Part shown: positions 22,809 through 60,845 of the stretch, piece by piece
Numbering within the stretch: position 1 is the stretch's first letter
Layout of the letters: the number at the start of each line of letters is the position of its first letter
Assembly (NCBI GenBank): GCA_019419865.1
Contig: JAHZIG010000008.1
Coordinates: 58,061 to 122,060 of the forward strand
Direction: 5' to 3'
Origin: Clostridiales bacterium
Lineage (GTDB): Bacteria; Bacillota; Clostridia; Monoglobales; Monoglobaceae
Length of the DNA: 64,000 bases
The notes under the pieces: generated by a model
What the model saw: the letters and a program-made list of their open reading frames with translations, nothing else
Databases searched by the model: none
What the model was told of the DNA's origin: nothing
Translations under genes and position numbers: made by a program

Positions 22809-25451
22809 TTACAAACCTATCGCTATGCACGGACTCATATCGTTAGGGTATAGGAAGGTCTTCACCGTTCCGGCTTCGGCGTTTACGCTAAGGTCTACGT
22901 CCATAGTCTCGGTATTGGCCGGTATCAGATCGAACGACGCGTCCGCTACGTTTCCGTTCTCGTCGTATACCGCCGCGATAAAGACCGCGGACTCCGCGCC
23001 CAGGTTGGTTATCCGAGCCTGAACCGAACCGTTTGTAAGCTGCGGTTTTGAAGTATAGTACAGCTCGTCGGTCGCTTCAGTATTGCCGTTTAGCGTTATA
23101 TTTCCGTATTTGACCTCGGCCATATAGTCCTTTGTAGGAGTTCCTTCGACCGAATCGACCGCTATACCTACGTACAGCGTATCCGCAAGCCCCTCTATCG
23201 TGACGCTCTGCGGCTGTCTTGGGTTATTCGTCCAATCCTCTCCGTCGTCGGATACGTAGAACGTCAGCGTATCTCCCACTCTCTGGATACGCATATACTT
23301 CGGAACTCTGAAGGCTTCCTCGCTCGTGTCGTAGCCGTCCGCGTCGTTTGAAAGATCCGAACCGTCCGCGCCTGTGAAGAAGGATACGGCCGCTTCTCCG
23401 CCGACGGTATCTCTATATACGGCTCTGACGTTCTCGCCGTACTTGAGCCAGCCGTCCGCGAGCATAGCCATTCTCGAATCCGGGTCTAAGCTCTCTCTCA
23501 GCATGAGTCCGCTTATCTGTCCGTTTTCAAACTTAGCTATCTCCACCATCTCGGCGCTTATATCAAAATCGCCCGTTACCTCTTTATACATAAAGTCGCA
23601 GCTGTCGCTCGTTCCGCCGATCAGACCGCTTCCGAAGATGTCGTATACTCCGTTAACTTCCATCCCGGCTCCGCCTTCTCCGTCGAACGACGGCGTTCCT
23701 ATCTGCGTATGCGTATATCCTTCCGCGTCGCTTGAGTTCTTGACGTACACTATCGACGTCGGGCTTCCCGTACTCTCGCCCTCGTTATTATACGCTCTCG
23801 ACGTTAGGTAATGCGTCCCCGCTTCAAGCGTTATATTGTCGTCTATCTCGCTCGCGCCCTCGTACGTGCGTATAAGCTCGTTCCCGTCGTAGAGCTCCAT
23901 CTTGGTTATCTCGGTTCCGTCAACCGGCAAAGCTACGGCGCTGTAATTCAGCTCCTCGTTATCGCTGATGACCGCCCAGTTGCCGTTGTCCACCGCGTAG
24001 CCGTTTATCTCGTCGCTGAGCGACGCTATAGCCGGAGACGTTACCACTATATCGGGGTTGCTCGGCGCGTCTTGGCTCTCGGTCCAGTCGTTTACATACG
24101 CCTCTATCCAGGTATAGCCGGCCCATTCGCCGCTCTCTACTATATCGGTCTCTGACGCGCTTCCCATGTTGTTCGCGTTTTTCCAGTCCTCAGGGATCTC
24201 GAATACGCGGCTGGTCTCTTCCATCTCTATCAGGCCGCCGGTCTCGTTCGCGTTGTTTACTATCCTGCCCGTGCCGTTCTTGACGTCCGCGACTATTCTC
24301 GCGTCTATGCTATCCCGTCTCGGCAGAGTAGCGCCCGCGTTGCTTAGTACTTCCTCGTACGCGTCCTCCGCGCTCTGCTCGGGCAGCGCGTATTCGCCCA
24401 TATCTATAGGCTCGCTCAGCATATTGCCAAGTTCGCTCTTGTAAACGCCCTCTACGTTGTTAGCGGTCGTTTCGGGATCGCCGAATACATAGTTGCCCGC
24501 GAAGTAGAAATTGGACATATTCTCTTCGGGCTTTGCATTAGTGACCTCGAACAGTCTGCTTCTTAATATTTCCGCTGTAGACGGTCCGTATTTATAGTAG
24601 TTGTTCATCCAGTTCACGTTTGAATCGTTAAACGTTATGCTGTTATACGAATACGGTTCCGCGCCGTACGCCGAATTTGTTATACCCCAGTCGTATATGA
24701 CGTTGTTGACTATATCCGTGCCGCCAAGCTCGCGGTCGAGTCTCGGGCTTCTGCTGTCGTGATGCGCGAGCAGGTTGTGATGGTAGCTGGCGTTCGTACC
24801 GCCCCATATAGCGCCGTAGCCGTGCGCGCCCTTAAAATGATCGGACATTCTAAGACTCTCGGAGCCTATGCAGTTCTGCATGGTGATCTCGCTCGCAGGC
24901 GTATACTCTTCTCTCTCGCTTGAACCGGCGTACAGGGTCAGACCCTCGTCCACGCTCCAGCTCACGCTGCAATGGTCGATGATTATGTTATGGTTCCAGC
25001 GGCCGCCGAGTCCGTCCGGTTCGCCGTCGCTCATATCGGTCGGTCTTATTCTGAGGTAGCGCATTATTATATTGGAAACTCCGTGCGCCAGCAAAAGATC
25101 CGACCCAGCGAAGGTTATGCCGTCGCCCGGAGCCGTCTGTCCGAGTATGGTCAGGTTATCGCTCGGGATCTGGAGCGTCTCGTTTAGCCATATGGTTCCG
25201 CCTACGTCGAATACGATTATGCGTCCCGGCTGAGATACCGCGTCCGCAAACGAACCCGCTCCCGACTCGTTTAAGTTTGTAACATGGTATACCTCGATAC
25301 TCTCCGCGCCTCTCGCGCCCGTGGTATATTTACCGCCGCCTTCGGCTCCAGGGAACGCTAAGAGCTCGTCCGCCGCGTAACCGGTAAATCCAAAACAGGA
25401 GCACGCCATGACCAGAACAGTGACAAGCGCGATTATCTTTTTTAGTTTCAT
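22809..25451 (-). CDS. Secreted pectate lyase, polysaccharide lyase family 1 (copy A)
   Basis: 880-residue exported enzyme that cleaves polygalacturonate by beta-elimination. A signal peptide covers about residues 1-27 (cleavage after GYAA). The PL1 parallel beta-helix spans about 30-400, with AFPGAEGGGKYTTGARG, DNLTILGQTAPGDGITFAG, IIIDHCSVSWSVDE and YHHNLLAHHDSRSPR matching the PL1_2-like group. A bacterial Ig/FN3-like part follows, then a jelly-roll module (DFDISAEMVEIAKFENGQ to VGIAVDS) and a short terminal beta domain. It has no SLH or dockerin, so it is likely free in the medium. GGGAGG precedes the ATG. Bases 23677-24407 are shared with copy B. Confidence 0.93.
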   Translation of the reverse strand: MKLKKIIALVTVLVMACSCFGFTGYAADELLAFPGAEGGGKYTTGARGAESIEVYHVTNLNESGAGSFADAVSQPGRIIVFDVGGTIWLNETLQIPSDNLTILGQTAPGDGITFAGSDLLLAHGVSNIIMRYLRIRPTDMSDGEPDGLGGRWNHNIIIDHCSVSWSVDEGLTLYAGSSEREEYTPASEITMQNCIGSESLRMSDHFKGAHGYGAIWGGTNASYHHNLLAHHDSRSPRLDRELGGTDIVNNVIYDWGITNSAYGAEPYSYNSITFNDSNVNWMNNYYKYGPSTAEILRSRLFEVTNAKPEENMSNFYFAGNYVFGDPETTANNVEGVYKSELGNMLSEPIDMGEYALPEQSAEDAYEEVLSNAGATLPRRDSIDARIVADVKNGTGRIVNNANETGGLIEMEETSRVFEIPEDWKNANNMGSASETDIVESGEWAGYTWIEAYVNDWTESQDAPSNPDIVVTSPAIASLSDEINGYAVDNGNWAVISDNEELNYSAVALPVDGTEITKMELYDGNELIRTYEGASEIDDNITLEAGTHYLTSRAYNNEGESTGSPTSIVYVKNSSDAEGYTHTQIGTPSFDGEGGAGMEVNGVYDIFGSGLIGGTSDSCDFMYKEVTGDFDISAEMVEIAKFENGQISGLMLRESLDPDSRMAMLADGWLKYGENVRAVYRDTVGGEAAVSFFTGADGSDLSNDADGYDTSEEAFRVPKYMRIQRVGDTLTFYVSDDGEDWTNNPRQPQSVTIEGLADTLYVGIAVDSVEGTPTKDYMAEVKYGNITLNGNTEATDELYYTSKPQLTNGSVQARITNLGAESAVFIAAVYDENGNVADASFDLIPANTETMDVDLSVNAEAGTVKTFLYPNDMSPCIAIGL
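23677..24407. repeat. 731-bp tract identical to 26695-27425
   Basis: By direct comparison I found no difference between this tract and 26695-27425 (offset 3018). The first flanking differences are at 23676/26694 and 24408/27426. It covers the end of the catalytic domain and the Ig-like module of both pectate lyases. Confidence 0.9.
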
Positions 25452-25550
25452 TTATGTTACCTCCCTGCAAAGATATTTTTCTTTTGATATGCCTTCTATT
25501 TTATCATAATCCTTAAACTATTTTAACAGATTTTATAGCTTTTTTACAAT

Positions 25551-25566
25551 GCTATTTTGTCATTTT
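25551..25566 (-). promoter_or_regulatory. 16-bp motif shared upstream of both pectate lyase genes
   Basis: Read on the minus strand as AAAATGACAAAATAGC, 100 bp before the start codon. The same motif with one change is 97 bp before the other lyase gene (28557-28572). It may be an operator or simply conserved ancestral sequence. Confidence 0.4.
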
Positions 25567-25616
25567 GCTTAAATATATTAATAAATCAGGGATCGCGTTA
25601 TTATTCAAGCGCGGCG

Positions 25617-28460
25617 CTATACCGAAAACGGCTTCGTAAGAGGCTGCATTTTTTCGTTCCACAACATTATTCTTATATCTCCGAAGTCCCGAAGCTCCCT
25701 TACTTCGAGCCTGTACTCCGCCTTTCCGCTCTCGACCGCGAACCTTACGACCTCGCAGTCGAGCAACATCCCGTCGTCGCCGTAGGACGCTATCAACGCG
25801 CTGTTTACGCCGCCCGTCTCCGCGTTCTCCGGCGCGGCTATCGCAAGTTCTCCGTCATTGTATCCGACTATGCTCCACTCGTCGCTAAACCCGGGCGTCG
25901 CTGTCGGAGTCGCCGTTGGCGCAGCCGTAGGTATCGGCGTCGCGGTTGGAGACGGCGTAGGAGGCGCCGTAGCCGTAGGCGCCGCAGTCGCGCTCGGCGT
26001 AGGAGTCGCCGTTGGTATAGGCGTCGCCGTGGGAGCCGCGGTTGGAGTTGCGGCGGGCGTCGCTGTTGGCGTAGGCGCAGCGGTCGGCGGCGCGACTTCC
26101 GTTCCTTCAAAATCGATATCGCCGTATTTGACCTCGGCCATGTAGTCCTTCGTCGGAGTACCTTCGGCTGAATCGACCGCTATACCTACGTACAGCGTAT
26201 CCGCAAGCCCCTCTATCGTAACGCTCTGCGGCTGTCTCGGGTTATTCGTCCAATCCTCTCCGTCGTCCGATACATAGAATGTTATCCTGTCTCCCACTCT
26301 CTGGATCCGCATATACTTCGGAACTCTATATTCGTCTTTGCTCGTGTCGTAGCCGCCGTCGTTGTCGATCGTTCCGCCTCTTTCGTTCTTAAAAAACAGG
26401 TCGTCCTCCGCGTTTTCGCCCGTCTCCGCCCTGTACAACACTCTGACGTTCTCGCCGTACTTGAGCCAGCCGTCCGCGAGCATAGCCATCCTCGAATCCG
26501 GGTCTAAGCTCTCTCTAAGCATAAGCCCGCTTATCTGTCCGTCCTCAAACTTAGCTATCTCCACCGTCTCGGCGCTTATATCAAAGTCGCCGGTAACAGT
26601 CTTATACATGAAGTCGCAGTTGTCGTTCTTTCTACCTATCTTACCGCTTCCGAAGATATCGTATACTCCGTTATCTTCCATCCCGGCTCCGCCCTCTCCG
26701 TCGAACGACGGCGTTCCTATCTGCGTATGCGTATATCCTTCCGCGTCGCTTGAGTTCTTGACGTACACTATCGACGTCGGGCTTCCCGTACTCTCGCCCT
26801 CGTTATTATACGCTCTCGACGTTAGGTAATGCGTCCCCGCTTCAAGCGTTATATTGTCGTCTATCTCGCTCGCGCCCTCGTACGTGCGTATAAGCTCGTT
26901 CCCGTCGTAGAGCTCCATCTTGGTTATCTCGGTTCCGTCAACCGGCAAAGCTACGGCGCTGTAATTCAGCTCCTCGTTATCGCTGATGACCGCCCAGTTG
27001 CCGTTGTCCACCGCGTAGCCGTTTATCTCGTCGCTGAGCGACGCTATAGCCGGAGACGTTACCACTATATCGGGGTTGCTCGGCGCGTCTTGGCTCTCGG
27101 TCCAGTCGTTTACATACGCCTCTATCCAGGTATAGCCGGCCCATTCGCCGCTCTCTACTATATCGGTCTCTGACGCGCTTCCCATGTTGTTCGCGTTTTT
27201 CCAGTCCTCAGGGATCTCGAATACGCGGCTGGTCTCTTCCATCTCTATCAGGCCGCCGGTCTCGTTCGCGTTGTTTACTATCCTGCCCGTGCCGTTCTTG
27301 ACGTCCGCGACTATTCTCGCGTCTATGCTATCCCGTCTCGGCAGAGTAGCGCCCGCGTTGCTTAGTACTTCCTCGTACGCGTCCTCCGCGCTCTGCTCGG
27401 GCAGCGCGTATTCGCCCATATCTATCGGCTCGCTAAGCATAACGCCGAGATAGCCGTTATACACGCCGCTTAAATTATCGTTGGTTACAGCGTCGTTCTC
27501 AAAAACGTAGTTGCCGGCGAAGTAGAAGTTTGATTTACTTCTGTTTTCGTTATTGCTTACTTCAAACAATCTGCCGAATAATTTACTCGCTGTTGATGGA
27601 CCATGCTTATAATAGTTATTCACCCAATTCACATTTGAGGGATTATATGTTTCGCTGTTATACGAATACGGCTCGGCTCCGTACGCCGAGTTGGTTATTC
27701 CCCAATCGTATATGACGTTGTTTCTGATGTCGGTCCCTTGGAGTTCGCGGTCGAGTCTTGGACTTCGGCTGTCGTGGTGGGCGAGCAGATTGTGGTGATA
27801 GCTGGAGTTCGTTCCTCCCCATATCGCCCCGTAACCGTGAGAGCCTTTGAAATGATTCGACATCTTAAGGCTTTCCGCGCCTATGGTATTCTGGATAGTC
27901 AAATTACCGCCCTGAGTTCGATCCTCGCTCGAACCCGCGTACAGGGTCAGTCCCTCGTCCACGCTCCAGCTCACGCTGCAATGGTCGACGATTATATTAT
28001 GATTCCAGCGGCCGCCGATCCCGTCCGGCTCCCCGCCGTTTTGATCCGTGGGTCTTACTCTAAGATACCGCATTATTATGTTGGACGCGCCGCTCGCAAA
28101 CAAAATATCCGACCCGGCGAACGTAATACCGTCGCCCGGAGCCGTCTGGCCGAGTATGGTCAAATCGTCTCTCGATATAGTAAGCGTATTATTGAGCCAA
28201 ATCGTTCCGCCGACGTCGAAAACTATTATTCGCCCGGAACGGGATACCGCGTCCGCAAACGAACCCGAACCCGATTCGTTTAGGTTGGTAACATGATATA
28301 CCTCGATATTATCCGCGCCTCTCGCTCCGGTAGTATACTTACCGCCGCCCTCGGCTCCCGGAAACGCCAAGAGTCCGTCGTCGGCGTATACCTCTAAGCT
28401 GAAGCATGAAAATATAAAGATTATACTCGTTAAGAAAACCGCCGCTCTCTTCAACTTCAT
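25617..28460 (-). CDS. Secreted pectate lyase, polysaccharide lyase family 1 (copy B)
   Basis: 947-residue paralogue of the lyase encoded downstream. The signal peptide covers about residues 1-26. The PL1 domain has the same motifs (GQTAPGDGITFAGSD, DHCSVSWSVDEGLTLYAGS, HHNLLAHHDSRSPRLDREL). The Ig-like and jelly-roll modules follow. Unlike copy A, it then has a Pro/Thr/Ala-rich linker of about 70 residues (PTATPTP type) and an extra C-terminal beta domain (WSIVGYNDGELAIAAPENAE onward). This linker makes it modular but there is no SLH or dockerin. Both copies are read in the same direction, 165 bp apart. Confidence 0.93.
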   Translation of the reverse strand: MKLKRAAVFLTSIIFIFSCFSLEVYADDGLLAFPGAEGGGKYTTGARGADNIEVYHVTNLNESGSGSFADAVSRSGRIIVFDVGGTIWLNNTLTISRDDLTILGQTAPGDGITFAGSDILFASGASNIIMRYLRVRPTDQNGGEPDGIGGRWNHNIIVDHCSVSWSVDEGLTLYAGSSEDRTQGGNLTIQNTIGAESLKMSNHFKGSHGYGAIWGGTNSSYHHNLLAHHDSRSPRLDRELQGTDIRNNVIYDWGITNSAYGAEPYSYNSETYNPSNVNWVNNYYKHGPSTASKLFGRLFEVSNNENRSKSNFYFAGNYVFENDAVTNDNLSGVYNGYLGVMLSEPIDMGEYALPEQSAEDAYEEVLSNAGATLPRRDSIDARIVADVKNGTGRIVNNANETGGLIEMEETSRVFEIPEDWKNANNMGSASETDIVESGEWAGYTWIEAYVNDWTESQDAPSNPDIVVTSPAIASLSDEINGYAVDNGNWAVISDNEELNYSAVALPVDGTEITKMELYDGNELIRTYEGASEIDDNITLEAGTHYLTSRAYNNEGESTGSPTSIVYVKNSSDAEGYTHTQIGTPSFDGEGGAGMEDNGVYDIFGSGKIGRKNDNCDFMYKTVTGDFDISAETVEIAKFEDGQISGLMLRESLDPDSRMAMLADGWLKYGENVRVLYRAETGENAEDDLFFKNERGGTIDNDGGYDTSKDEYRVPKYMRIQRVGDRITFYVSDDGEDWTNNPRQPQSVTIEGLADTLYVGIAVDSAEGTPTKDYMAEVKYGDIDFEGTEVAPPTAAPTPTATPAATPTAAPTATPIPTATPTPSATAAPTATAPPTPSPTATPIPTAAPTATPTATPGFSDEWSIVGYNDGELAIAAPENAETGGVNSALIASYGDDGMLLDCEVVRFAVESGKAEYRLEVRELRDFGDIRIMLWNEKMQPLTKPFSV
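26695..27425. repeat. 731-bp tract identical to 23677-24407
   Basis: Second copy of the identical tract within the paired lyase genes. Flanking coding sequence on both sides is clearly diverged, including silent positions. Confidence 0.9.
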
Positions 28461-57635: not shown

Positions 57636-59843
57636 TTATTCAGCGTCAGCCGTTGCCGTAGCCTCGGGAGAAGCGGTTGCCTCCGCGTCTGCCGTAGCTT
57701 CCGGAGAAGCCGTTGTCTCAGGAGCAGCCGTTGCTTCAGCGTCTGCAGTAGCTTCCGGAGAAGCCGTAGCTTCAGCCTCGTCAGCGCTCATAACTCTTGC
57801 GAGTATTGCAGCAGCCTCAGCTCTTGTAGCGTTGTTCTTCGGCAGGAACGTGCCGTCCTCATAACCTGTGAGGTATCCAGCTTCTACCATGCCTGCAACG
57901 TAACCTGCAGCGTAGTCCGCTATATCAGCGCTGTCTGTGAAGGACGAAGCCGAATTAGAGGACAGGTTGAGGTAACGTCCAACTATTGTGCAGATATCTT
58001 CACGCGTGATCGTGTTGTTAGCGTCGAACCACTCGTCGGATACGCCCGTTACGATACCAGCTTCGCTTGCAGCGATTACGTACGGTGTGTACCAGTCGCT
58101 TGCCGTACAATCAAGGAATGCGGACGTCGTAGCCGTGTTGGTGAGTCCGAACAGCTCAACCGCCATCTTTGTGAACTCAGCTCTGGTTACCGTGTTATCG
58201 GGCAGGAATGTGCCGTCCGGATAACCGTTGATTATACCAGCTTCATAGAGATCCATGATGTACTCGTAGCCCCAGTATGACGAAGGAACGTCGGTGAATA
58301 TCTGCTCGTCGTCCGTTCCGGGAGTAGCCGTAGCGTCAGGATCCGCCGTTGCCGAAGGAGTAGCCGTCGGGGTCGTCGTACCGCTGCCGCCGGACCAGCC
58401 GGGAGCGCCGCCAGAACCGCCGCTCGGTCTAACTGTAGTCCAGGTTATGGTAACGTCCTCAGCCGGCATATCGAACGAACCGCTAAATCCTGTGCCATTG
58501 TAAGAGAGATTTCTTACGTAGTAGCCTGTAGCCGCGTCAACGTCTACCTCTACTACGGAAGCCGGGTAGATCGTATCGCCGGAAGCTATCTCAGCGCCGT
58601 TAACCGTAACTGTCGCCGAATCTGTGTTCTGCGGAACCGTCCAAGAAACTGTGTAAGGTACTACGTTCTTAGCAGCCTCTACCAGATCCTGACCAGCGCT
58701 GATAACAGCCTGGAGGTTCTCGTCCGTAGGATCAGCCTGATAAGCTTCTACAGCGTTATCCAAAGCCGTCTTAGCGTTATTAGCATTGTTTATGTTCTCC
58801 TGCTGAGCGTCGTTGATGTAAGACTCGCCTTCCTCAGGAGTGAGAGCGTCTGTCATCGCATTGATGTCAGCCTGAACACCGTTAGAGAGCTCTGTAGCCT
58901 CTGTGATAACGTCCGCAGCTTCCATCTGTCTGAACTCAGCTACGATCGTAACGTCGGACGCCGGCATTACAAACGTGTTGTCCGTAACCGCTACGGCCTC
59001 TTCACCGGCCGTTACAGCGAGCGTACCGTCAACGTACTGATAACCAAAGTCAGGTACTACTGTAAGAGTAACTGTGTCGCCAGCCTCAGGAGCCGCGGGC
59101 GTATACTCAACAGTACCGTTCTCAGCCTCTACCGTGATTCCGTATGTAGGAGCTGTCGTAGGAGCCGCTGTCGGAGCCGCCGTTGCGGTAGCTACAGGTT
59201 CAGATGTCGGCTCGCCGGGCTCTGTTGTAGGAGCTGTCGTAGGTTCTGCCGTTGCAGGAGCTGTGGGCTCTGCAGTAGGTTCAGCCGTCGGCTCTGCAGT
59301 AGGCTCAGCTGTCGGAGGAGCTTCTGTTAAGTTAACAGTAATGTCTGAACCGCCTTCAACTGTTGCATTATCATCGGTTATAAAATCGCCTACTCCATCC
59401 AAGAAGGATAATTTACTAATTGAAATGTTTGTAGAAGATACATCCACACCCTCATTAACAGTAAAGGTTATTTTTGCAAGGGTTCCCTCAAAGTAATCTT
59501 GGAGTTTTGCCATCTTAATCAAGCCCGGCTCTTGAGTACTAACCGTAACCGCTCTATTAAAGAACATATCTCTGTCAGTACTATCAGTAGCCGTCAAAAC
59601 CTCAGGATCAAACGTAATCTCAATTCCCGAGCTATTAAGATATGTCTCATCAGAACCGTTATCTGTAACAGAACCAGCCTCTAATGTTAAATCAAATGAA
59701 TTATTTACTACATCTGATACAGTATATTTAACTGATACTTTGGCAGCACTATCAGCAGCAAATACCGATGTGCTAACCATCATTAGACTCATAACCATTG
59801 CGACAACAAGGGTTATAGCCGTAACTTTTTTTATACTTTTCAT
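57636..59843 (-). CDS. Cohesin-like SLH-domain surface protein
   Basis: 735-residue exported protein. A signal peptide (about 1-29, ending VFAA) precedes a cohesin-like beta-sandwich at about 33-172, with GIEITFDPEVLTATD, GLIKMAKLQDYFEGTLAKIT and SISKLSFLDG. A Pro/Thr/Ala/Glu linker, an InlB-repeat-like domain (YGITVEAENGTVEYTPAAPE), a helical FIVAR-like segment and a second beta domain follow. Three SLH domains (starting FTDVPSSYWG, FLDCTASDWY and FTDSADIADY, with GYPDGTFLP and TRAEF/TRAEA) anchor it to the wall. A 45-residue Ala/Thr/Glu tail follows the SLH domains, which is unusual. It lies 33 bp after the dockerin-protein gene. Confidence 0.85.
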   Translation of the reverse strand: MKSIKKVTAITLVVAMVMSLMMVSTSVFAADSAAKVSVKYTVSDVVNNSFDLTLEAGSVTDNGSDETYLNSSGIEITFDPEVLTATDSTDRDMFFNRAVTVSTQEPGLIKMAKLQDYFEGTLAKITFTVNEGVDVSSTNISISKLSFLDGVGDFITDDNATVEGGSDITVNLTEAPPTAEPTAEPTAEPTAEPTAPATAEPTTAPTTEPGEPTSEPVATATAAPTAAPTTAPTYGITVEAENGTVEYTPAAPEAGDTVTLTVVPDFGYQYVDGTLAVTAGEEAVAVTDNTFVMPASDVTIVAEFRQMEAADVITEATELSNGVQADINAMTDALTPEEGESYINDAQQENINNANNAKTALDNAVEAYQADPTDENLQAVISAGQDLVEAAKNVVPYTVSWTVPQNTDSATVTVNGAEIASGDTIYPASVVEVDVDAATGYYVRNLSYNGTGFSGSFDMPAEDVTITWTTVRPSGGSGGAPGWSGGSGTTTPTATPSATADPDATATPGTDDEQIFTDVPSSYWGYEYIMDLYEAGIINGYPDGTFLPDNTVTRAEFTKMAVELFGLTNTATTSAFLDCTASDWYTPYVIAASEAGIVTGVSDEWFDANNTITREDICTIVGRYLNLSSNSASSFTDSADIADYAAGYVAGMVEAGYLTGYEDGTFLPKNNATRAEAAAILARVMSADEAEATASPEATADAEATAAPETTASPEATADAEATASPEATATADAE

Positions 59844-59876
59844 ATTTATGATTTTCCCCTTTCTAAATCACAGGTA

Positions 59877-60845
59877 TTATTCAAAAGATGTAATACGTTC
59901 AAGATAATAACTTAATATAGTATTAACATCATCTATATTAACCGACCCTTTCTCAGCCGCCACATCTGCTGCTTTCATTTGATCATCGGTAAGTGTAGTT
60001 CTTTCAAGATAATAAGATAATACCAAATTAACGTCATCTATATTGACAATACCATCGCCGTTTACATCACCTAATGTTACGTCGCCGCCTTCTTCTGCAT
60101 CAGCAAGCGCATACGACTTAGCGTCAGGAACATCGACGCCAGTACCGCCGGCTTTTACAACTATAACAGAATTCGTGTTGTAACCGTTAGTAGCCGTGGT
60201 CTCGCCTGTCTCGCCTTTCGGAAGGTTAAATACAAGCGTACCCGAAGCCGCGCCGGCCTGCTGGTCTATGTAACCTGCCGGAGTAGTAGCCGTGAAACCG
60301 CTCTGGTTATTGCCGTCTGTGATGCTTGTGATATCGTAAACGAAGAACGTCATCTGCTCGGGAGCGTTCTCTACCGAAAACGGAACAGATACCGTGTAGT
60401 AATCGCCCGCGTCCGTAGCGCTGATATCGCCTATTGTTATAACGGAACCGGTAGCTACGTCCTCAGCCGCAAGCTCTACCTCTTCCTCGGTTACGCCTTC
60501 AGTAACTTCCATAGGAACAACTACTTCAGTCGGAACTTCTGCGTCTTCTGCCGGAGCTTCGACGTCCTCAGCCGGAGCTTCTACATCTTCCGCGGGAGCT
60601 TCAACGTCCTCAGCCGGAACTTCTGCGTCTTCCGCAGGAGCTTCAACGTCTTCAGCCGGAGCTTCTACGTCTTCAGCGGGGGTCTCAACGTCCTCTGCGG
60701 GAGCCTCCGTATCGGCAGTTTCAACAACCGCCGGCGCTTCTTCCACCGCGTCTACCTCGTCGGCAAACGCTACGGCGCTGAGTGCGGAGAATACCATTAA
60801 AGCCGCTGTTAAAGCCGCGCCAAATTTAAAAAAGTTATTTTTCAT
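59877..60845 (-). CDS. Exported protein with acidic repeats and C-terminal dockerin
   Basis: 322-residue exported protein. Signal peptide about 1-28, then nine 7-residue acidic repeats (EAPAEDV type), a beta-rich domain of about 110 residues with no recognised family, and a type I dockerin at about 258-322. The first calcium loop is intact (GDVNGDGIVNIDDVNLVLSY). The second is degenerate (DVAAEKGSVNIDDVNTIL): the NGDG of the loop reads AAEKG. No enzyme domain is present, so it is not a standard cellulosomal enzyme. GGAGG lies ten bases before ATG 60845. It is first in the operon with the SLH protein and has a leader of about 335 nt. Confidence 0.85.
   Translation of the reverse strand: MKNNFFKFGAALTAALMVFSALSAVAFADEVDAVEEAPAVVETADTEAPAEDVETPAEDVEAPAEDVEAPAEDAEVPAEDVEAPAEDVEAPAEDVEAPAEDAEVPTEVVVPMEVTEGVTEEEVELAAEDVATGSVITIGDISATDAGDYYTVSVPFSVENAPEQMTFFVYDITSITDGNNQSGFTATTPAGYIDQQAGAASGTLVFNLPKGETGETTATNGYNTNSVIVVKAGGTGVDVPDAKSYALADAEEGGDVTLGDVNGDGIVNIDDVNLVLSYYLERTTLTDDQMKAADVAAEKGSVNIDDVNTILSYYLERITSFE
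60519..60707 (-). repeat. Nine 21-bp coding repeats in the dockerin-protein gene
   Basis: Nine in-frame copies of a 7-codon unit, EAPAEDV with E-T/V-P and EDA variants. Base changes between units are mostly silent or conservative. The extended, negatively charged stretch would act as a spacer across the cell wall. Confidence 0.9.

What the first reader, a model, noticed from the sequence alone, without database searches (positions are those of the whole stretch)
57636..60845. Cohesin-like SLH protein and dockerin protein in one operon
A protein with a cohesin-like N-terminal domain and three SLH domains is encoded 33 bp after an exported protein with a C-terminal dockerin. This is the minimal set for a surface-anchored cohesin-dockerin complex, in an organism with a pectin-directed gene content. 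The dockerin partner has no enzyme domain, so the complex may be structural or adaptor-like rather than a classical cellulosome.
Basis: partly seen in the sequence, partly recalled or inferred. Interest (0 to 1): 0.8.

Follow-up and report, generated by a model that had tools for sequence, protein, structure and literature searches.

The report
Swappable lock-and-key pair on bacterial surface
Two adjacent genes of a gut bacterium encode a dockerin "plug" and a predicted cohesin "socket" that likely bind each other on the cell surface, and comparison with relatives shows that the DNA for plug and socket has been exchanged as one block of about 0.7 kb while the rest of both genes stays, which would give each lineage its own private fit.

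Summary
In detail: an exported protein with a C-terminal dockerin (59877-60845, -) is followed after 33 bp by a protein with an N-terminal cohesin-fold domain and three SLH repeats (57636-59843, -). The cohesin fold is a confident model (pLDDT 85; 49 of the 50 best Foldseek rows listed are cohesins).

The larger finding: against the nearest held genome, G001, the SLH region is 97% identical, but one 729-bp stretch (59323-60051: dockerin, gene boundary, signal peptide, cohesin) has no alignable counterpart; the cohesins are 13% identical. Over 13 operons, dockerin and cohesin diverge together (Mantel r 0.72) but not with the rest of their own proteins. In G011 and G013 this block is 89-95% identical in DNA between flanks of 64-79%, so both halves moved together. 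Dockerins fall into 47 types among 109 proteins; variation is mirrored in both dockerin repeats at cohesin-facing positions. A second cohesin/dockerin protein of the same genomes does not behave so.

Best reading: a dedicated surface lock-and-key pair, likely private to a lineage, inherited as one recombining cassette that spans two genes. Binding and the selective reason are untested. One lineage (G006 type) shows a single allele.

The parts
59877..60845 (-). Gene 1: exported protein, signal peptide, acidic PAED repeats, Ig-like module, C-terminal dockerin
   Evidence: ORF and ribosome site; Pfam, PDB and fold matches of the dockerin
60096..60452 (-). Conserved body of gene 1: predicted beta-sandwich module of unknown function (residues 134-252 of the 324-aa reading)
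   Evidence: alignment of 18 close homologs; model; fold search unspecific
59880..60071 (-). Dockerin of gene 1, two F-hand repeats; second calcium loop degenerate
   Evidence: repeat comparison
59844..59876 (-). 33-bp intergenic stretch, part of the exchanged block
57636..59843 (-). Gene 2: signal peptide, cohesin, Pro/Thr linker, Flg_new_2 domain, three SLH repeats
59322..59753 (-). Cohesin-fold domain of gene 2 (about residues 31-174)
   Evidence: model and fold matches
58926..59144 (-). Flg_new_2 domain of gene 2
57762..58298 (-). Three SLH repeats of gene 2 (predicted wall anchor)
59323..60051 (-). Exchanged cassette: dockerin, gene boundary, signal peptide, cohesin; no blastn counterpart in G001
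   Evidence: same block shared by G011 and G013

Best explanation
Gene 1 makes a predicted exported protein ending in a dockerin and gene 2 a predicted wall-anchored SLH protein beginning with a cohesin-fold domain; the two likely bind each other, and the roughly 0.7-kb stretch of DNA that runs from the dockerin across the gene boundary to the end of the cohesin has been replaced as one unit between related genomes. Shown by comparison: replacement of the block between the window and G001; sharing of one block by G011 and G013 inside unlike flanks; co-divergence of the two modules; discrete dockerin types on near-identical bodies. Inferred: (1) the SLH repeats hold gene 2's product on the cell wall with its cohesin exposed on a Pro/Thr linker; (2) the dockerin docks there in either of two orientations and displays the conserved acidic/Ig-like body; (3) because the dockerin is last in gene 1 and the cohesin first in gene 2, homologous recombination in the conserved flanks swaps key and lock together and keeps the fit; (4) what is selected is a private fit, so that a cell's dockerin protein stays on its own kind and does not cross-dock to neighbours or to the genome's other dockerin systems. 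Step 4 is the least certain (about 0.4 on its own); the confidence given is for steps 1-3.
For: Window against G001: the only large unaligned window stretch in 36.9 kb is 59323-60051 (729 bp; next 89 bp); SLH 97%, dockerin 48%, cohesin 13% identical. Third cohesin type on a 98-99% identical SLH region (P0110). 13 operons: dockerin~cohesin r 0.72, p 2.5e-4; dockerin~own body r 0.00; cohesin~own SLH r 0.18, p 0.07. G011/G013: block 89-95% identical, flanks 64-79%; AU tests reject the two conflicting groupings. Control cohesin/dockerin protein follows its own backbone. Dockerin types: 47 among 109 sequences, 10 of 18 multi-member body clusters hold more than one, 5 types on more than one body. 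Mirrored recognition positions in the two repeats. A search of 38 genomes with the window's cohesin gave 4 matches, 3 of them operon cohesins of the same dockerin group.
Against: No binding data and no complex model. The window's cohesin is not found by Pfam; its dockerin is just under the cut-off and its second calcium loop is degenerate. The 97 database proteins show dockerin types without their linked cohesins. The G006-type body cluster (9 rows, one of which stands for 254 sequences) has a single dockerin type, and a 5-row cluster too. G012, of the same dockerin group, was not hit, and one hit there was another protein.
Confidence: 0.75

Rival explanations
1. The same lock-and-key pair and cassette exchange, but driven by phage or host-immune pressure on an exposed cohesin, with the dockerin changed along with it to keep binding, as with surface-protein cassettes that serve as phage receptors.
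For: The cohesin is predicted to be surface-exposed and changes over its whole length. Phage-receptor S-layer protein with cassette types is known in Clostridioides difficile (search listing and abstract starts only).
Against: The other predicted exposed parts, body of gene 1 and SLH region of gene 2, stay conserved; the dockerin varies at cohesin-facing positions. Neither excludes phages that bind the cohesin.
Confidence: 0.3
2. The operon dockerin and cohesin are not each other's partner: the cohesin holds other dockerin proteins and the dockerin goes to another scaffoldin.
For: G001 has other cohesins (6 matches) and dockerins (12 matches).
Against: Co-divergence and joint transfer of the operon pair. 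In G001 the operon dockerin is 25-39% identical to each of 10 other dockerins compared (of 11), but 59% to the operon dockerin of G014, whose cohesin is also the closest to G001's.
Confidence: 0.12
3. Ordinary fast drift of two surface domains, with assembly or binning errors making it look like exchange.
For: All but one of the compared genomes are drafts in many contigs, and G001 and those that carry a record title here are MAGs; G013's contig begins inside gene 1.
Against: Types are discrete: of 190 pairs 28 are at 90% or more and 162 below 70%. Shared blocks inside unlike flanks need two joins within about 0.7 kb. A protein with G013's dockerin and body has a longest contig of 174,281 bp, not G013's 46,194-bp contig (P0093). 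A control cohesin in the same genomes is not affected.
Confidence: 0.06

Closest known systems
ScaC adaptor scaffoldin of Ruminococcus flavefaciens
   Same: A cohesin/dockerin protein polymorphic within one gut species and used as a strain marker (PMC3197198, PMC4081043; passages).
   Different: Cohesin and dockerin are in one protein and bind different partners. One paper reports a conserved cohesin with variation mainly in the second dockerin repeat, the other finds the ScaC cohesins of three strains conspicuously different. In the passages seen, no matched pair exchanged as one block across two genes.
Cohesin-SLH anchoring proteins of Clostridium thermocellum (OlpA, OlpC, SdbA)
   Same: Cohesin on a cell-surface protein holding a dockerin protein. 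Architecture recalled; their cohesins are among the fold matches.
   Different: They hold enzymes or scaffoldins; here the partner is a non-enzymatic operon mate and the pair is hypervariable.
Amylosome of Ruminococcus bromii
   Same: Dockerin-cohesin surface complex in a gut bacterium outside cellulose (PMC5814915, passages).
   Different: Enzymes and scaffoldins are reported as remarkably conserved between strains.
S-layer (slpA) cassette types of Clostridioides difficile
   Same: Surface-protein allele cassettes exchanged by recombination (recalled; papers seen only as listing and abstract starts).
   Different: There one precursor protein; here a dockerin and a cohesin in two genes.

Membership tests
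Cohesin domain (PF00963) | Cohesin fold | tested here: met
Cohesin domain (PF00963) | Sequence profile over Pfam's cut-off | tested here: inconclusive
   Window's own domain: no match at E <= 1. Orthologous domain over the cut-off in 4 of 12 other operons
Cohesin domain (PF00963) | Binds a dockerin | not testable with these tools
   Inferred from co-divergence and joint transfer
Type I dockerin (PF00404) | Two F-hand repeats with dockerin sequence and fold | tested here: met
   E 7e-8 to a PDB dockerin; fold 2ccl_B 1.1 A; two matching repeats, 13 of 15 positions. Pfam 22.5 bits, just under the 22.9 cut-off
Type I dockerin (PF00404) | Calcium binding in both loops | not testable with these tools
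   First loop canonical, second degenerate by eye (recalled loop pattern)
S-layer homology anchor (PF00395) | Three SLH repeats | tested here: met
   135.6 bits, three stretches
Cellulosome | Dockerin-bearing enzymes on a multi-cohesin scaffoldin | tested here: not met
   In this operon: one cohesin, no enzyme domain. In G001 none of nine cohesin/dockerin proteins scanned has a catalytic Pfam domain over its cut-off; two further dockerin proteins there were not scanned. The window's own genome is not held.
Polymorphic ScaC-type adaptor | Cohesin and dockerin in one polypeptide | tested here: not met
   Two separate genes

The most novel reading that the evidence does not exclude
A bacterial self-recognition (private-key) surface system: gut bacteria of this family each carry one of dozens of mutually exclusive cohesin-dockerin lock-and-key types, kept diverse by selection for being different from neighbours and traded as a cassette that spans two genes and so never breaks the match.
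Probability: 0.35. Interest if true: 0.92.

Novelty: new variant of a known kind. Interest (0 to 1): 0.8.

Why it matters
Cohesin-dockerin pairs are the textbook strong protein plug, studied mostly as glue for enzymes. Here nature seems to run a specificity experiment: many pair types on one conserved scaffold, each with its own recognition positions, and a gene order that lets recombination swap both halves at once. If binding proves type-specific, it would give a lineage-level identity tag in gut bacteria, a library of orthogonal binding pairs, and a natural data set for the cohesin-dockerin code. It makes the question of how matched partners change specificity without losing each other directly testable.

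Tried and rejected
Classical cellulosome: rejected for this operon (no enzyme, single cohesin). Silent cassettes or phase variation within a genome: the window's cohesin has no match at E <= 0.01 in G001 and the dockerin protein has one match there at E <= 1e-5; not testable in the window's own genome. Viral carriage: no relative of the dockerin protein in the viral collection. Site-specific recombination: upstream crossover points differ between proteins (P0007, P0010, P0013, P0014), which fits homologous recombination better. Function of gene 1's body: fold search gave only unspecific matches, top row histone chaperone Asf1 at TM 0.31. A search for more anchor orthologs with a region of gene 2 returned only the 2 already known. 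Literature: eight searches for cohesins or dockerins in Monoglobus/Roslinia or for polymorphic or jointly exchanged pairs. Only the listed rows were seen. The two listed papers that hold both a Monoglobus-type name and 'dockerin' (PMC9554435, PMC13106777) hold 'dockerin' in their reference lists. The library is open-access papers only.

Full report

WHERE IT IS FROM. The window's own assembly is not held; the nearest held genome, G001, shares 25% of sampled 31-mers. A contig of the same length that carries the operon is named Candidatus Roslinia caecavium, a chicken MAG. Several relatives are named Monoglobus. G006 is a single contig of 2,757,678 bp, presumably M. pectinilyticus (size recalled). 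Two tandem genes of the window match a pectate lyase (E 3e-46 and 6e-47 to 9buj_A), though neither matches a Pfam family at E <= 1e-5.

THE OPERON IS CONSERVED. The dockerin protein was found in 28 of 38 genomes of the family at E <= 1e-5; in 13 of them the match is strong (E < 1e-60), elsewhere often little more than the dockerin. In 12 genomes (G001, G006-G016) I read both genes side by side, dockerin gene first and cohesin at the start of the next gene. G005's contig carries the dockerin gene near its end without the partner. Family-wide, Pfam cohesin matches (E <= 0.01) occur in 30 of 38 genomes and dockerin matches (E <= 0.001) in 32 of 38.

THE REPLACED BLOCK. Window and G001 are collinear from window position 27091 to 64000; the main 28-kb aligned piece is 91.9% identical, the others 86-96%. 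The largest window stretch without a counterpart is 59323-60051 (729 bp, facing 750 bp); the next is 89 bp, opposite a 4.8-kb insertion in G001. The block begins about 20 bp inside the dockerin and ends at the cohesin's end. SLH regions are 97% identical, gene 1 bodies 74%, dockerins 48%, cohesins 13%. A third cohesin type, 24% and 21% identical to these two, sits on a 98-99% identical SLH region (P0110). Elsewhere in the family G010 and G007 have flanks 88% and 92% identical with no aligned base in the block, while G010 and G012 align over the whole block at 79%.

LOCK AND KEY CHANGE TOGETHER. Over 13 operons (window, G001, G006-G016) the distance matrices of dockerin and cohesin correlate (r 0.72, p 2.5e-4). 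Dockerin and its own body do not (r 0.00), cohesin and its own SLH only weakly (r 0.18, p 0.07); partial correlations stay at 0.72-0.73. With only the first of G006's two cohesins r is 0.75; six sets of dropped rows give r from 0.38 (8 operons, p 0.046) to 0.76. Nearest neighbours agree in 6 of 13 (p 0.004), against 0-2 of 13 for comparisons with the backbone. Searching 38 genomes with the window's cohesin gave four matches: the operon cohesins of G010, G016 and G015, whose dockerins belong to the window's group, and one other protein of G007; G012, of the same group, was not found.

TRANSFER OF THE WHOLE CASSETTE. G011 and G013 belong to different subclades on a second, roughly 800-residue protein that also has a cohesin and a dockerin (59% identical over its length). 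Yet their operon cohesins are 93% and dockerins 84% identical. In DNA, identity is 73% upstream (64% of that stretch aligned), 89% over the dockerin, 95% over gene boundary and signal peptide, 95% over the cohesin, 64% just downstream and 79% at the 3' end. AU tests on nine genomes reject the control clade G008+G011+G014 on the cohesin tree (p 8.5e-9) and G011+G013 on the control tree (p 1e-47). The groups were named after the identities were seen, and the program flagged long branches. The MAGs carry different sample names (Lapin-012, Lapin-028). P0093, which shares body and dockerin type with G013, has a longest contig of 174,281 bp, not G013's 46,194-bp contig. A chimeric contig would need two joins within about 0.7 kb.

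CONTROL. Over 28 pairs of 8 genomes (10 fetched; G005 and G006 left out of the table) the cohesin of the 800-residue protein is 53% identical at the median and its dockerin 62%, close to its whole length (60%). The operon cohesin is 22% and dockerin 43%, with the SLH region at 90%. The operon cohesin is the less conserved in 27 of 28 pairs; the exception is G011-G013. So the hypervariability belongs to this pair and not to every cohesin of these genomes.

ALLELES AND CODE. Seventeen close homologs of gene 1 share a conserved body but carry seven dockerin types. Among 190 pairs of 20 sequences, dockerin identity is either 90% or more (28 pairs) or below 70% (162), with nothing between. The same type occurs on different bodies, with different crossover points. 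Taking 96 of the 109 database hits plus 13 operons (109 sequences, some genomes counted twice), there are 47 dockerin types; 10 of 18 multi-member body clusters hold more than one, and 5 types occur on more than one body. Six of the 8 single-type clusters are a genome and a database protein that may be the same sequence. Against the pattern, the nine-row G006-type cluster, one row of which stands for 254 sequences, has one type, and so has a five-row cluster. In 47 type representatives the first repeat matches its own second repeat (0.76) better than those of others (0.36; p 5e-5; own best or tied in 39 of 47). The match is strong at loop positions 10, 11, 14, 17, 18, 20, 21 and 22, no better than between types at 15 and 16, and weak at 19. 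Positions 10, 11, 17, 18 and 22 are dockerin recognition positions (recalled). Simple copying of one repeat onto the other would have evened out all positions, so selection for binding the same cohesin in two orientations is the simplest reading (inference).

MECHANISM. Most likely the anchor presents its cohesin on the wall and the dockerin protein docks on it, displaying its conserved body. The two modules lie next to each other in DNA, so recombination in conserved flanks (body of gene 1, linker and later parts of gene 2) swaps both. Why diversity is favoured is open: private fit would explain why variation sits in the interface modules and not in the rest; phage or immune pressure is the main rival. 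In G001 the operon dockerin is 25-39% identical to 10 of 11 other dockerin matches (the eleventh, a weak partial match, was not compared) and 59% to the G014 operon dockerin, which fits a dedicated pair.

LITERATURE. The nearest precedent is polymorphic ScaC in R. flavefaciens (PMC3197198, PMC4081043; passages). R. bromii amylosome parts are reported as conserved between strains (PMC5814915; passages). PMC11557425, a genomic survey of cellulosome bacteria, does not hold 'Monoglob' or 'Roslinia' in its main text (term search). No paper on these genes in this family, or on exchange of a matched pair as one block, was seen in the listings.

Noticed in passing
L003, L005-L009 (G001:C48, C71, C28, C6): Six large G001 proteins end in dockerin-like tails that are 76-95% identical to each other and unlike the operon dockerin; four scanned had no catalytic Pfam domain over its cut-off.
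   Followed up: partly
L050:2168-6094 and L050:6141-9521 (G001:C34): Two neighbouring proteins of 1309 and 1127 aa, each with two cohesins around a dockerin plus fn3 and Big_2 domains: scaffoldin-like.
   Followed up: no
L051:5334-7893 (G001:C29); L123-L132: In G001 a cohesin-SLH gene overlaps a dockerin gene; the dockerin protein is homologous to the C-terminal half of a roughly 800-aa protein with cohesin and dockerin in the other genus.
   Followed up: partly
L104:4027-8531 (G006): The G006 operon has two cohesins in its anchor and a third gene with cohesin and SLH.
   Followed up: no
window 22812-28460 (-): Two tandem pectate-lyase-like genes, found by PDB sequence match but without a Pfam match at E <= 1e-5.
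   Followed up: partly
G001 genome: The SLH protein query gave 99 six-frame matches at E <= 1, many of them to SLH repeats: a very large SLH surface repertoire.
   Followed up: no
window 30884/30974 and 62871/62879: G001 has extra stretches of about 4.8 kb and 1.4 kb at these two points relative to the window; content not examined.
   Followed up: no
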